From Agrococcus jejuensis (GTDB lineage: Bacteria; Actinomycetota; Actinomycetes; Actinomycetales; Microbacteriaceae), in assembly GCF_007679035.1 (NCBI RefSeq), contig NZ_VEFR01000001.1:124001-188000 (forward strand): 64,000 nt of DNA. Reading direction: 5' to 3'. Within the stretch, counting starts at the first letter, position 1. Each line of letters starts with the position of its first letter. The notes below the pieces were generated by a model. That model was given only the letters and a program-made list of their open reading frames with translations. It was not told the origin of the DNA and did not search any database. The position numbers and the translations under genes were made by a program. Below are positions 48,013-52,016 of this stretch, one piece after another.

Positions 48013-48152
48013 GCTCCCTTCCGAGGGATCAGTCTGCCACCGGTCGGCGCTCGACGCACGGCAGCCTCCGCCGCGGGTCGTAGGATCGGATGCGGTGCTC
48101 GCGCGCGTCCTACGCGTGCGTCCGCACGTGCAGGAGACCCAGGAGACGACCG

Positions 48153-50693
48153 GTGAGCGAAGAGTACGACGTCCACGCCATGCAGGAGCGGTGGCTGCAG
48201 GAGTGGGATCGACTTCGCCCGTTCGCGACCGACGACGACGGCGACACGCGCCCCCGCAAGTACGTGCTCGACATGTTCCCGTACCCCTCGGGCGACCTGC
48301 ACATGGGTCACGCCGAGTCGTACGCGTACGGCGACGTGCTCGCGCGCTACTGGCGCCAGCAGGGCTTCAACGTGCTGCATCCCATCGGCTGGGACTCCTT
48401 CGGCCTGCCCGCCGAGAACGCGGCCATCCGCCGCGGCGTGGATCCGGCTGGCTGGACCAACGAGAACATCGAGCAGCACAAGCGCTCGATGCGCCGCTAC
48501 GCCACGGCGTTCGACTGGGACCGCATCCTGCACACGTCGGACCCCGGCTACTACAAGTGGAACCAGTGGCTGTTCCTCGAGCTGTTCAAGGCCGGCCTGG
48601 CGTACCGCAAGCCCGCGAACGTCAACTGGTGCCCCAACGACCAGACGGTGCTGGCGAACGAGCAGGTCATCGACGGCCACTGCGAGCGCTGCGACGCGCT
48701 CGTCGAGAAGAAGCAGCTGACGCAGTGGTTCTTCAAGATCACCGACTACGCCGACCGCCTGCTCGACGACCTCAACCAGCTCGAGGGTCGCTGGCCCGAG
48801 AAGGTGCTGCGCATGCAGCGCAACTGGATCGGCCGCTCCGAGGGCGCCGACGTCGACTTCGCGATCGAGGGCCGCGACGAGCCCGTGCGCGTCTTCACGA
48901 CGCGCCCCGACACCCTGTTCGGCGTGACCTTCATGGTCGTCGCGCCCGACTCCGACCTGGCCTCCGAGCTCGTCGCGGGCGCCGACGAGGCGACGCAGGC
49001 GGCCTTCGCCGAGTACCTGCAGCGCACGCAGCGCATGACCGACATCGACCGCCAGTCGACCGAGCGCGAGAAGACCGGCGTGCCCCTCGGGCGCGACGCG
49101 ATCCACCCGTTCACGGGCGAGCGCCTCGCGATCTGGGCCGCCGACTACGTGCTGGCCGACTACGGCCACGGCGCCGTGATGGCCGTGCCCGCGCACGACC
49201 AGCGCGACCTCGACTTCGCGCGCGCCTTCGACCTGCCGGTCAAGGTGGTGCTCGACACGAACGCGCCCGTCACGGGCGTCATGCCCATGATCCCCATCGA
49301 CGACGACGGCAACGCCATCGAGCCCGAGTCGTACGAGCCCGTCGACCCCGCCGTCACGGGCGAGGCGCTCACGGGCTCCGGCCGCATGATCCAGTCGGGA
49401 CCGCTCGACGGGCTGTCGAAGCAGAACGCCATCGCCCGCGCCATCGCGATGCTCGAGGAGCGCGGCATCGGCGGCGCCGCCAAGACGTACCGACTGCGCG
49501 ACTGGCTCATCTCGCGCCAGCGCTACTGGGGCACGCCCATCCCGATCGTGCACACCGCCGACGGCGAGATGGTGCCCGTGCCGCTCGAGCAGCTGCCCGT
49601 GACGCTGCCGGATGCCTCGGGCCTCGATCTCAAGCCCAAGGGCTCGAGCCCGCTGGGCGCGGCGACGGAGTGGATGCAGGTGCCGTCGCCGATCGACGGC
49701 AGCCCCGCGCAGCGCGACCCCGACACGATGGACACGTTCGTCGACTCGTCGTGGTACTACCTGCGCTTCCTGTCGCCGAACGACGACACGAAGGCGTTCG
49801 ACCCGAAGCAGGCCGAGCGCTGGGCACCCGTCGACCGCTACGTCGGCGGCGTCGAGCACGCCATCCTGCACCTGCTCTACGCGCGCTTCATCACGAAGGT
49901 GCTGTTCGACCTGGGCCACGTGTCGTTCACCGAGCCGTTCGAGTCGCTGCTGAACCAGGGCATGGTCATCCTCGACGGCGCGAAGATGTCGAAGTCGAAG
50001 GGCAACCTCGTGACGCTGTCCGAGGAGCTCGACCGCTTCGGCGTCGACGCCATCCGCGTCACGATGTCGTTCGCCGGCCCGCCCGAGGACGACATCGACT
50101 GGAAGGACGTCAGCCCCGCCGGTGCGCAGAAGTTCCTGGCGCGCGCGTGGCGACTGTCGGGCGAGGTCAAGGCGCCCAAGGGCGCGGATGCGAAGGGCGG
50201 CGACGCCGCGCTGCGCCGCGAGACGCACAGGTTCTGGCGCGACGCCCCCGGGCTCATCGAGGCGCTGAAGTTCAACGTCGTCGTCGCGCGCCTCATGGAG
50301 CTGACGAACGCTGCCCGCAAGGCCGTCGACGGCGCTGCCGGCGCGGCGGACCCCGCCGTGCGCGAGGCCGTCGAGGCCATCGCGCTCGGCCTGTCGCTCT
50401 ACGCGCCGTACACGGCCGAGGACATGTGGGCCAGGCTCGGCCACGAGCCGTCGATCGCGAACGCCGGCTGGCGCAAGCCCGACGCGACGCTGCTCGTGGA
50501 GCAGTCGACGACCGCGATCGTGCAGGTCAACGGCAAGGTGCGCGACCGCGTCGAGGTCCCGGCCTCGATCGGCGCCGACGAGCTCGAGGCGCTCGCGCGC
50601 GAGCTGCCCGGCGTCGTGCGCTCGGTCGGCGACGGCCAGATCGTGAAGGCGATCGTGCGTGCGCCCCAGCTCGTGAACCTCGTGGTGCGCTGA
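48153..50693 (+). CDS. leuS: Leucyl-tRNA synthetase
   Basis: The class I synthetase charges tRNA-Leu. The 846-residue protein has [16 protein letters not shown] (HIGH motif as HMGH), the CP1 editing domain (about 230-420, with [13 protein letters not shown]), the zinc-type knuckle CPND...CERCD in the connective peptide, and [10 protein letters not shown] (KMSKS motif) near residue 610, followed by the anticodon-binding domain. The GTG start ([13 protein letters not shown]) has GGAGA upstream. Length is normal. Confidence 0.97.
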
Positions 50694-50720
50694 CCGCCTG
50701 ACCCGCTGAGCTTGCGTTCT

Positions 50721-50775
50721 GCAGGCGATTCCGGGTCCTGAGGGAGCATTCCCCTCAGCACCCGGAATCGCCTGC
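50721..50775. terminator. Long imperfect hairpin between leuS and the DUF4258-KH gene
   Basis: GCAGGCGATTCCGGGT (50721-50736) and ACCCGGAATCGCCTGC (50760-50775) form a perfect 16-bp stem. After one C-C mismatch a further 7-bp stem (CTGAGGG/CCCTCAG) closes a 7-base loop. It ends 22 bases before the ATG of the next gene. Without a T-tract it may be a terminator for leuS, a dispersed palindromic repeat, or an RNA site for the KH protein that follows. Confidence 0.6.
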
Positions 50776-50797
50776 GAGACGGAATCGGAGGAGCGCC

Positions 50798-51355
50798 ATG
50801 GACGTGCCCGTCATCGCCATCGCGCTCGGCGCGCTGCTGCTCGTCGTCGTCGCGGGGCTGCTGCTGCGCGGGCTGCGTCGGCGCCCGTCCCGCGCTCGGG
50901 AGCGCGTCGTCGCGCTGCCGTCGACGACGCCCGTGCGGCTCACGACGCATGCGCGCGAGCGGATGGCGCAGCGCGGCGTGCTCGAGCGCGACGTCGCGCT
51001 GGTGGCGCGAGCACCGCATCGTGCGACGCCGGATGCCGAGGAGGGCAGCGTGGCGCTTGAGCGCGACCTCGACGGCGACGTGCTCAAGGTCTGGGTCGTC
51101 GCGCCCTGGCCGCCGGCCGCGGAGGTCGTCGTGAAGTCGACGGCGTGGCAGCGCGTCGCGCTCGGTCGCATCCCGCGCGACGCGATCGGCGCCGTCGTCG
51201 GGCAGGGCGGCGCGACGATCCAGGCGCTCGAGCGCTCGACGGGCGCACGCATCGCCATCGACCGCGCGACGGGCGAGGTGCGCGCGACGGCGTCCGACCG
51301 ACGCACGGCCGAGGATGCGCTGCGCCAGGTGGAGGCCGTCGCGCGCTGCGCCTGA
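50798..51355 (+). CDS. Membrane-anchored DUF4258-KH domain fusion protein
   Basis: This 185-residue protein has three parts. An N-terminal membrane segment covers about 4-25 (IAIALGALLLVVVAGLLLRG) with a basic stop-transfer stretch. A DUF4258-like domain at about 46-118 contains LTTHARERMAQRGVLERDVA and EVVVKSTAW. A KH-type RNA-binding domain at about 122-183 has IPRDAIGAVVGQGGATI, with the GxxG loop GQGG at 135-138, followed by STGARIAIDRATGEV. Each part is recognisable but the combination is unusual. It has GGAGGA upstream and lies between leuS and comEA. Function unknown; RNA binding at the membrane is inference. Confidence 0.75.
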   Translation: MDVPVIAIALGALLLVVVAGLLLRGLRRRPSRARERVVALPSTTPVRLTTHARERMAQRGVLERDVALVARAPHRATPDAEEGSVALERDLDGDVLKVWVVAPWPPAAEVVVKSTAWQRVALGRIPRDAIGAVVGQGGATIQALERSTGARIAIDRATGEVRATASDRRTAEDALRQVEAVARCA

Positions 51356-51450
51356 CCGCCGTGCCCGGGGTCGCGCGCTCGTCGCTCCCTCACAGGCAGG
51401 CCGCATCCACAGGTCCCCGACGTGACGACGGGCTCGGCGTCTCGCGCCCC

Positions 51451-51456
51451 TAGCGT
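51451..51456 (+). promoter_or_regulatory. Leaderless-type -10 of comEA
   Basis: TAGCGT lies eight bases before the comEA ATG. Confidence 0.45.
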
Positions 51457-51464
51457 CGCTCGGC

Positions 51465-52016
51465 ATGGAGCAGTCCCTGCGGTGGCGCATCGGCGTGGGC
51501 GCGGCCGCGGTGCTCGTCGGTGGCGCGGTCGTGGGCGCCGTCGTGACGCAGGCGGCCGTGCCGCAGGTCGCGCCGGCGGTCGTCGAGGAGCAGGCGGGTG
51601 CGTCGGCCGCGACGATCCTCGTCGACGTGCAGGGCGCCGTGGCGCGGCCCGGCGTCTACGCGCTGGCCGACGGCGCACGGGTGGTCGACGCCATCGCTCG
51701 CGCGGGCGGCGCGACGGCAGAGGCGGACTCGTCGGCGCTCAACCTGGCGCAGCCGCTCACCGACGGGTCGCAGGTGCGCGTGCCGGTCGTGGGGGAGGCG
51801 CCGCCCGGCGCGATCGATGCGAGCGGCCTCGTGGACGTGAACCAGGCGACGGTCGACGAGCTCGACACCCTGCCGCGCATCGGCCCGACGCTCGCGAGCG
51901 CGATCGTCGCGTACCGCGAGGAGCAGGGCCCCTTCGCGTCGATCGACGACCTCGACGCCGTCTCGGGCATCGGGCCCGCGATGCTCGCAGCGCTCGAGCC
52001 GCTCGTGTCGTTCTGA
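51465..52016 (+). CDS. comEA: Competence protein ComEA (SLBB + helix-hairpin-helix DNA receptor)
   Basis: ComEA is the membrane-anchored receptor that binds double-stranded DNA during natural transformation. The 183-residue protein has an N-terminal membrane segment (about 10-30), an SLBB-like domain at about 48-110 (ILVDVQGAVARPGVYAL, then GSQVRVP), and a C-terminal helix-hairpin-helix repeat at about 118-180 (VDVNQATVDELDTLPRIGPT, then VSGIGPAMLAAL). It is three bases from comEC, and the pair forms the DNA-uptake module. Confidence 0.93.
   Translation: MEQSLRWRIGVGAAAVLVGGAVVGAVVTQAAVPQVAPAVVEEQAGASAATILVDVQGAVARPGVYALADGARVVDAIARAGGATAEADSSALNLAQPLTDGSQVRVPVVGEAPPGAIDASGLVDVNQATVDELDTLPRIGPTLASAIVAYREEQGPFASIDDLDAVSGIGPAMLAALEPLVSF

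What the first reader, a model, noticed from the sequence alone, without database searches (positions are those of the whole stretch)
50721..51355. DUF4258-KH membrane fusion preceded by a long hairpin
The protein joins a membrane anchor, a DUF4258 domain and a KH RNA-binding domain with an intact GQGG loop. The gene is preceded, 22 bases away, by a hairpin with a 16-bp perfect stem plus a 7-bp upper stem. A membrane-bound RNA-binding protein with a structured element in its own leader suggests autoregulation or an RNA-handling system. The combination looks undescribed.
Basis: partly seen in the sequence, partly recalled or inferred. Interest (0 to 1): 0.8.

Follow-up and report, generated by a model that had tools for sequence, protein, structure and literature searches.

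The report
Membrane toxin-fold RNA-binding protein, unrelated hairpin
An actinobacterium carries an apparently undescribed membrane protein that joins a toxin-like ribonuclease fold to an RNA-binding domain, while the hairpin in front of it is one copy of a repeat scattered at the ends of genes and not a switch that belongs to this protein.

Summary
ORF 50798-51355 encodes 185 aa with an N-terminal membrane helix. Its DUF4258 domain is below Pfam's cut-off in this protein but above it in two full-length relatives, and its predicted fold resembles RelE/BrnT-type toxins. Its KH domain (intact GQGG) has a confident type I fold, nearest PNPase and Dim2 KH. The gene is under purifying selection. 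I found the same architecture in 7 genomes, at different chromosomal places; no literature search returned it. The hairpin (16 + 7 bp) is one of about 35 copies in this genome of a 69-73-nt extragenic palindrome that sits just after stop codons (33 convergent against 5 divergent sites, seven genomes). Here it follows leuS. The KH gene of other lineages lacks it, and four genomes have the repeat without the gene. So autoregulation through "its own" hairpin is not supported. Best reading: a solitary, antitoxin-less, membrane-tethered BECR-fold (RelE-superfamily) domain steered by a KH domain, probably an RNase or RNA tether, beside an unrelated REP-like gene-end repeat. Activity is untested.

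The parts
50798..51355 (+). ORF, 185 aa: membrane helix + DUF4258 (BECR/RelE-superfamily-like fold) + KH type I domain
   Evidence: dN/dS 0.27-0.34 among three species
50807..50878 (+). codons 4-27: one N-terminal hydrophobic helix, followed by an Arg-rich stretch (positive-inside rule, recalled, would put the rest in the cytosol)
   Evidence: helix 4-27; sequence; membrane location and topology inferred, no predictor run
50933..51148 (+). codons 46-117: DUF4258 domain; H51, R55, R59, W99, K113, W117 invariant in 10 aligned relatives
51149..51352 (+). codons 118-185: KH type I domain, GQGG loop at 51200-51211
50712..50783 (+). one copy (69-nt type A, with 2 nt each side) of a dispersed extragenic palindrome; holds the hairpin 50721-50775
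48090..50693 (+). leuS (leucine--tRNA ligase; longest ORF, start not checked), the gene whose 3' end the palindrome follows
51465..52016 (+). comEA-like gene; it follows leuS directly in 16 of 23 genus genomes examined

Best explanation
Two unrelated things lie side by side. (1) The protein is a single-pass, membrane-anchored, cytosol-facing RNA-targeting protein: a BECR-fold domain of the RelE/ParE superfamily (DUF4258) joined to a PNPase/Dim2-like type I KH domain. Most likely mechanism: the KH domain grips single-stranded RNA near the membrane and presents it to the DUF4258 domain, which cleaves or holds it; as the gene stands without an antitoxin, it acts as a house protein of RNA turnover and not as a toxin-antitoxin module. 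Shown: the architecture, both folds (predicted), selection, spread, no antitoxin among the flanking genes. Inferred: topology, RNA binding, cleavage. (2) The hairpin is a copy of a REP-like palindrome that marks, ends or protects transcripts at gene 3' ends and here belongs to leuS; it falls in the leader of the KH gene only because the gap is 104 nt.
For: KH: Pfam 1.1e-8 here, above cut-off in 5 of 5 KH-bearing relatives scanned, to 1.9e-13; model pLDDT 85.7, pTM 0.66; residues 117-184 on PNPase KH 4am3_A, Z 12.5, rmsd 1.3, 67 aligned. DUF4258: above cut-off in 6 of 9 relatives scanned, 2 of them full fusions; domain model pLDDT 91.7, pTM 0.82; first match BrnT 3u97, Z 7.7, rmsd 2.6, 73 aligned; 47 of the 50 rows shown bear the name of a TA toxin or pair, a CDI system or a sequence-specific ribonuclease. 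DUF4258 is listed as one of 13 BECR-fold toxin families, activity unknown (PMC11980606). dN/dS 0.27-0.34, lowest in the DUF4258 part (0.18-0.20). Of 8 flanking genes scanned in 4 other loci none is antitoxin-like. Hairpin: 35 copies at 27 sites in this genome, 12 convergent, 14 tandem, 1 divergent; KH gene without it in L034, L118, L110, L111; repeat without the gene in G011, G014, G001, G016.
Against: No biochemical evidence of any kind. DUF4258 in this protein and in L032, L034, L118 is below Pfam's cut-off. All fold matches of that domain have Z under 8, where the tool warns of common arrangements, and Foldseek has none under E 0.001, best 0.036. The catalytic residues of DUF4258 are not known to me, so an intact active site cannot be shown; one more distant relative (L191) has Glu for K113. 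The repeat is kept at this site in all three species that have the gene there, so a local role is not excluded.
Confidence: 0.45

Rival explanations
1. One reading: the hairpin is a cis-acting leader of the KH gene; the protein binds it and controls its own expression.
For: 22 nt from the ATG, very stable, kept in all three species that have gene and site. KH domains can bind loops of RNA hairpins (recalled; entries such as 1ec6 and 2ann are KH-hairpin complexes by title).
Against: About 35 copies in the genome; gene-end placement; absent before the homologous gene in 4 of 4 other-lineage loci folded, of which two have a different hairpin directly after a tRNA-Ser gene and two no structure (z +0.85, +1.20); genomes with the repeat and without the KH gene.
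Confidence: 0.05
2. The DUF4258 domain is no longer an enzyme; the protein is a membrane tether or chaperone for RNA, with the BECR domain as a second RNA- or ribosome-binding surface.
For: No antitoxin among flanking genes, while an active RelE-type RNase would need some control; below-cut-off Pfam score in this genus; KH loop intact.
Against: The DUF4258 part is the most constrained segment and has the 15 columns that are invariant in all 10 aligned relatives, KH-less ones included.
Confidence: 0.3
3. A membrane-bound defence toxin: it cleaves RNA or tRNA on entry of a phage or plasmid and is held silent by the membrane or the KH domain.
For: DUF4258 occurs in TA modules (PMC11980606, PMC10790755, passages) and in a CDI toxin class marked 'tRNase (?)' (PMC11630599); patchy spread and different chromosomal places; TM-bearing BECR toxins (ToxM) are proposed for defence.
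Against: No PADLOC match in 3 proteins scanned; flanking genes scanned are not defence-like; in plasmid and phage collections only the KH part (residues 119-182) matches, in 2 and 1 records, one annotated as pnp.
Confidence: 0.15
4. A single-stranded DNA handling protein of the competence cluster: the KH domain binds incoming ssDNA below ComEC.
For: Directly upstream of comEA-comEC in three species; some KH domains bind ssDNA (titles of 1zzi, 2p2r).
Against: In G008 and G017 the gene follows tRNA-Ser and in L110 and L111 it lies among unrelated genes; comEA follows leuS in G008 and G017 without it.
Confidence: 0.05

Closest known systems
DUF4258 (PF14076), one of 13 BECR-fold (RelE/ParE) toxin families (PMC11980606, passages read)
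   Same: Predicted baabbbb fold that matches BrnT, RelE, YoeB and HigB structures; HxxxRMxxR stretch shared with relatives above Pfam's cut-off
   Different: No antitoxin gene; N-terminal membrane helix; C-terminal KH. The paper lists 17 DUF4258-MqsA fusions and says that many multidomain BECR proteins without an identifiable antitoxin were left out; 'KH domain' has 0 occurrences in its main text
ToxM, transmembrane BECR toxins (PMC11980606, passages read)
   Same: BECR domain held at the membrane
   Different: ToxM is BECR-TM-extracellular domain with an upstream toxR antitoxin; here helix-BECR-KH and no toxR-like neighbour
RNase Y (recalled: TM - coiled coil - KH - HD)
   Same: Works-like resemblance only: membrane-anchored KH protein with a nuclease-type domain
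   Different: No HD match in the Pfam scan; other order and fold
KH domains of PNPase and archaeal Dim2
   Same: PNPase first in NCBIfam and tied with Dim2p 2e3u in fold (Z 12.5 and 12.4)
   Different: No S1 domain or phosphorylase core. By profile against PDB sequences, human FBP and IMP proteins rank above PNPase, so the origin of this KH is not settled
REP extragenic palindromes (PMC3733652; abstract, one section and passages read)
   Same: Palindromic, dispersed, extragenic, downstream of genes, mostly convergent or unidirectional sites, some in groups; CGTC REPs also lack a dedicated transposase
   Different: 69-73 nt with a stem of about 30 pairs, not 20-40 bp (CGTC stems 8-9 bp); no RAYT gene found; in many pairs and arrays two subtypes alternate head to tail at about 90-93 nt

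Membership tests
KH type I domain | Pfam KH_1 above gathering score, GxxG loop | tested here: met
   35.1 bits against 21.5; GQGG; both glycines invariant in the 5 aligned
KH type I domain | baabba fold | tested here: met
   secondary structure; 4am3_A Z 12.5, rmsd 1.3, 67 aligned
KH type I domain | binds single-stranded nucleic acid | not testable with these tools
   -
DUF4258 (PF14076) | Pfam gathering score | tested here: inconclusive
   17.9 bits against 25 in the window protein; above it in L110, L111, L112, L113, L119, L120, below it in L032, L034, L118
BECR fold (RelE/ParE superfamily) | helical segment then a 3-4-stranded antiparallel sheet; match to solved toxins | tested here: met
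   best Z 7.7 (3u97, rmsd 2.6, 73 aligned), all Z under 8, but 47 of 50 rows shown are of this kind; on a predicted model only
Type II toxin-antitoxin module | adjacent or fused antitoxin | tested here: not met
   window flanks are leuS and comEA with gaps of 104 and 109 nt; the 8 flanking genes scanned in L110, L111, L118, L034 are a periplasmic binding protein, SIS, YceI, a hydrolase, GNAT (2) and LysR-type (2). Very small genes in the gaps of the other loci are not excluded
ToxM | N-terminal BECR, central TM, extracellular C-terminal domain, upstream toxR | tested here: not met
   helix 4-27 first, BECR and KH behind it
RNase Y | HD nuclease domain | tested here: not met
   no HD match in the Pfam scan
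REP element | dispersed extragenic palindrome downstream of genes | tested here: met
REP element | 20-40 bp | tested here: not met
   69-73 nt; definition from PMC3733652
REP element | unpaired GTAG or CGTC tag at one end | tested here: inconclusive
   CGTC or CGTT stands near the ends of many copies but is mostly paired; the true ends of the element are not fixed
REP element (RAYT-mobilised) | RAYT (Y1_Tnp) gene in the genome | tested here: not met
   PF01797: 0 matches at E <= 0.1 in the own draft genome; the control rings in 8 of 14 genomes
Intrinsic terminator | hairpin followed by a T run | tested here: not met
   0 sites in 50400-51600; a T-less terminator is not excluded

The most novel reading that the evidence does not exclude
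A new class of membrane-tethered ribonuclease: a RelE-superfamily domain freed from its antitoxin and steered by a KH domain, doing in some Microbacteriaceae what RNase Y does elsewhere, namely cutting mRNA at the membrane. The KH domain stands where DUF4258 relatives carry fused partners (MqsA, DUF2283), so it may have replaced an antitoxin.
Probability: 0.25. Interest if true: 0.75.

Novelty: new variant of a known kind. Interest (0 to 1): 0.48.

Why it matters
BECR-fold domains are known as toxins with an antitoxin or as injected toxins. One that has no antitoxin gene beside it, sits in the membrane, is fused to a KH domain, is under purifying selection and lies beside housekeeping genes suggests that the fold was turned into an ordinary RNA-handling protein. 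The one survey of multidomain BECR proteins that I read in passages left antitoxin-less ones out. The protein would also give DUF4258, whose activity that survey lists as unknown, a tractable test case. Separately, the palindrome family is a REP-like system in an actinobacterium in whose genome no RAYT was found.

Tried and rejected
Autoregulation by the hairpin: rejected, see rivals. Known RNA: 0 Rfam matches in the window at gathering scores. T-tailed terminator: 0. RAYT-driven REP: no PF01797 match. Co-occurrence of repeat and KH gene: not strict. G000, G021, G023 and G008 have both; G017 has the gene and no repeat at E <= 0.001; G011, G014, G001, G016 have the repeat and no full-length gene. 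Defence: no PADLOC match. Plasmids and phages: only KH-part matches. Viral contigs: 0 relatives. Named genome contigs: 3 relatives, one of them a fusion. The full model's structure searches were filled by the KH domain, so the DUF4258 part was predicted and searched alone. The weak matches of the repeat model in 8 further genomes of 199 in the family sample (own genome excluded) are long palindromes, several with a GCAGGnGATC core, and are not counted as the same family. A resemblance of the arms to the Shine-Dalgarno sequence (recalled) was not tested and is probably chance.

Results that speak less clearly: the number of pairs with a two-sided change (16) and of further pair types (54) is no higher than in shuffles (16.4, reached by 401 of 500; 50.8, reached by 73 of 500); only the cell counts and the covariation score exceed all 500. 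Subtypes do not alternate everywhere: L124, L127, L165 and one pair of L159 hold type A only, L162 runs A, B, A, A read on the + strand of the locus with one B, and the pair in L151 is in opposite orientation (subtypes assigned by eye).

Limits: gene context rests on my own GC3-based caller, not validated; it called one site (two copies) inside a gene and one site has an unknown side. Sites of related species are partly orthologous, so the pooled 33:5 is not independent; the own genome alone gives 12:1, two-sided p 0.0034. Of the 35 copies in the own genome two (L135, L139) score low and one is partly unread. In G021 I fetched 12 regions and in G023 11, though one search lists more places; short weak rows and one place in G000 were not fetched. 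Of 105 hits, 1 cut copy was left out of the context count (104) and 4 of the alignment (101). Counts list both strands, score at most 150 candidates per genome, and their table is cut. score 14 candidates per genome. Genome samples hold one genome per species, evenly drawn. Of 8 papers that name DUF4258 I read passages of 3; PMC3733652 was read in abstract, one section and passages; all other papers were seen as listings only.

Full report
What was checked. The stem is 16 perfect pairs, a C/C mismatch and 7 more pairs; z of the fold is -6.24. The ORF lies between leuS (ORF 48090-50693) and a comEA-like gene (51465-52016), followed by comEC.

The protein. KH_1 is above Pfam's cut-off (1.1e-8); DUF4258 is not (E 0.0039). 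Of 9 relatives scanned, KH_1 is above cut-off in all 5 that carry the KH part (to 1.9e-13), and DUF4258 in 6 of 9, among them two full fusions of another genus (L110 2.5e-7, L111 3.3e-7); in the three other fusions scanned (L032, L034, L118) it stays below, as here. AlphaFold2 on three sequences gives pLDDT 85.7 and pTM 0.66, a helix 4-27, then two domains. Residues 117-184 superpose on PNPase KH (4am3_A, Z 12.5, rmsd 1.3, 67 aligned), tied with Dim2p (2e3u, Z 12.4). The DUF4258 domain alone gives pLDDT 91.7, pTM 0.82. The second-look aligner puts BrnT first (3u97, Z 7.7, rmsd 2.6, 73 aligned); 47 of the 50 rows shown bear the name of a TA toxin or pair, a CDI system or a sequence-specific ribonuclease, the other three being 1z8m (titled hypothetical), TrmO (7bu1) and Cami1 (8phb). 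All Z are under 8 and Foldseek has no match under E 0.001 (best 0.036, also BrnT), so each match is weak but their agreement is not. PMC11980606 (passages) lists DUF4258 among 13 BECR-fold toxin families with unknown activity, which fits.

Spread. Full-length relatives occur in 5 of the 24 genus genomes searched: G000, G021 (91%), G023 (84%), G017 (42%) and G008 (44%). The DUF4258 part finds 10 of 398 family genomes at E <= 0.01: G000 and G023; G269 and G170 with membrane helix, DUF4258 and KH; G117 and G179 with helix and DUF4258 but no KH; and four near E 0.01 that look like chance. A profile of the domain finds 3 of 396 genomes in an order sample and 3 of 396 in a phylum sample at 1e-6, the own genome included in each; one of them (L191) has DUF4258 and DUF2283 in one open frame. 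So I know of 7 genomes with the full fusion. Pairwise dN/dS among the three close species is 0.27-0.34 overall, 0.18-0.20 in the DUF4258 part and 0.26-0.41 in the KH part.

Place in the chromosome. The leuS end was found in 23 of 24 genus genomes. The KH gene follows it in three (G000, G021, G023). In 16 a comEA match begins 93-277 nt after the leuS stop, which leaves no room for the KH gene, and one search lists no palindrome at those places. The other four: G006 has comEA about 1.36 kb away, G004 and G015 show none within about 1.5 kb, and G020 is cut by the contig end (by eye). In G008 and G017 the KH gene follows tRNA-Ser (CGA) instead. Neighbours are shared within a lineage (L034 with L035, L112 with L113) but not between lineages. 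Of 8 flanking genes scanned in L110, L111, L118 and L034, none is antitoxin-like; the neighbours of L119 were not resolved.

The hairpin. A search of the own genome with the 101-base leader gives 72 rows on both strands. After fetching the places with flanks, a profile finds 105 copies in seven genomes, 35 of them in this one at 27 sites. They are 69-73-nt palindromes with a GCAGG...CCTGC stem and an AGGGA..ATTCCCCT-like apex. Two subtypes exist; in many pairs and arrays, not all, they alternate head to tail at about 89-94 nt (e.g. L157, L164). On 101 copies 84.4% of the cells pair (shuffles 79.6) and 255 cells have changes on both sides (shuffles 158, sd 13.6; 0 of 500); slid structures pair in 36-46%. 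Two of the five measures do not exceed the shuffles (see Tried and rejected). Relatedness of copies inflates such counts, and a palindrome kept at the DNA level would look the same. A covariance model finds the family in 8 of 24 genus genomes.

Where it sits. By my gene caller, 71 sites in seven genomes are 33 convergent, 31 tandem, 5 divergent, 1 inside and 1 unknown (104 copies). Convergent and divergent gaps should be about equally common, so this is strong placement at gene 3' ends (own genome 12:1, p 0.0034). In tandem sites the palindrome is nearer the upstream stop than the downstream start in 27 of 31; the window copy (21 nt to the stop, 17 to the start) and its orthologue in G021 are two of the four exceptions, in a short gap. 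Over 95 copies the median distance to the nearest stop is 27 nt, and 51 lie within 30. PMC3733652 (abstract, one section and passages) reports the same placement for REPs. No RAYT gene was found.

Link between the two. None found. The homologous genes of other lineages have a different hairpin directly after the tRNA gene (L034, L118) or no structure (L110 z +0.85, L111 z +1.20). G017 has the gene without the repeat; G011, G014, G001 and G016 the repeat without the gene.

Mechanism, with marks. Shown: architecture, predicted folds, selection, no antitoxin neighbour, gene-end repeat. Inferred: N-out/C-in topology from the Arg-rich stretch after the helix; RNA binding from an intact GxxG; cleavage from the superfamily. 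H51, R55, R59, W99, K113 and W117, invariant in 10 relatives, are candidates for the active site, but L191 has Glu for the lysine and no catalytic set of DUF4258 is known to me. I rate cleavage somewhat more likely than a pure tether because the DUF4258 part is the most constrained. The KH domain stands where other DUF4258 proteins carry fused partners (MqsA in PMC11980606, DUF2283 in L191); sources differ on the usual gene order (A/T in PMC11980606; antitoxin strictly downstream in E. coli in PMC10790755), so 'KH in place of an antitoxin' is only an idea.

Novelty. Searches for DUF4258 with KH domain (0 papers), RelE with KH domain, fusion and toxin-antitoxin (7 papers, listing only), Agrococcus with repetitive extragenic palindromic (0) and DUF2283 with toxin (0), and broader ones for palindromic repeats (listings), showed no description of this protein or repeat; the library holds only open-licence papers. 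The protein is a new architecture of a known superfamily; the repeat looks like a new family of a known kind.

Noticed in passing
L157 2000-2435, L164 1995-2425, L162 2000-2335 (genome G023): Arrays of 4-5 palindromes at about 89-93 nt, in L157 and L164 with alternating subtypes and partly repeated spacers.
   Followed up: partly
L181-L188 (other Microbacteriaceae genera): Long palindromes, several with a GCAGGnGATC...GATCnCCTGC core but a different middle; possibly distant relatives of the repeat.
   Followed up: partly
50721-50732 and 50764-50775: The arms (GCAGGnGATYC in the family) resemble an extended Shine-Dalgarno sequence (recalled); probably coincidence.
   Followed up: no
L191, 282-aa open frame: DUF6941, DUF4258 (below cut-off) and DUF2283 match in one open frame in another family of the order; DUF2283 may be a fused partner or antitoxin of DUF4258.
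   Followed up: partly
L112 1489-1857, L113 1390-1737: A KH-less sister: membrane helix + DUF4258 only, next to a gene that by eye encodes an inositol-monophosphatase-like protein in both genomes of one genus.
   Followed up: partly
L089, L104 (leuS-comEA gaps of other Agrococcus genomes): The same gap holds other repeated units there (GGTCGAG-type), so the end of leuS is a recurrent place for intergenic repeats.
   Followed up: no
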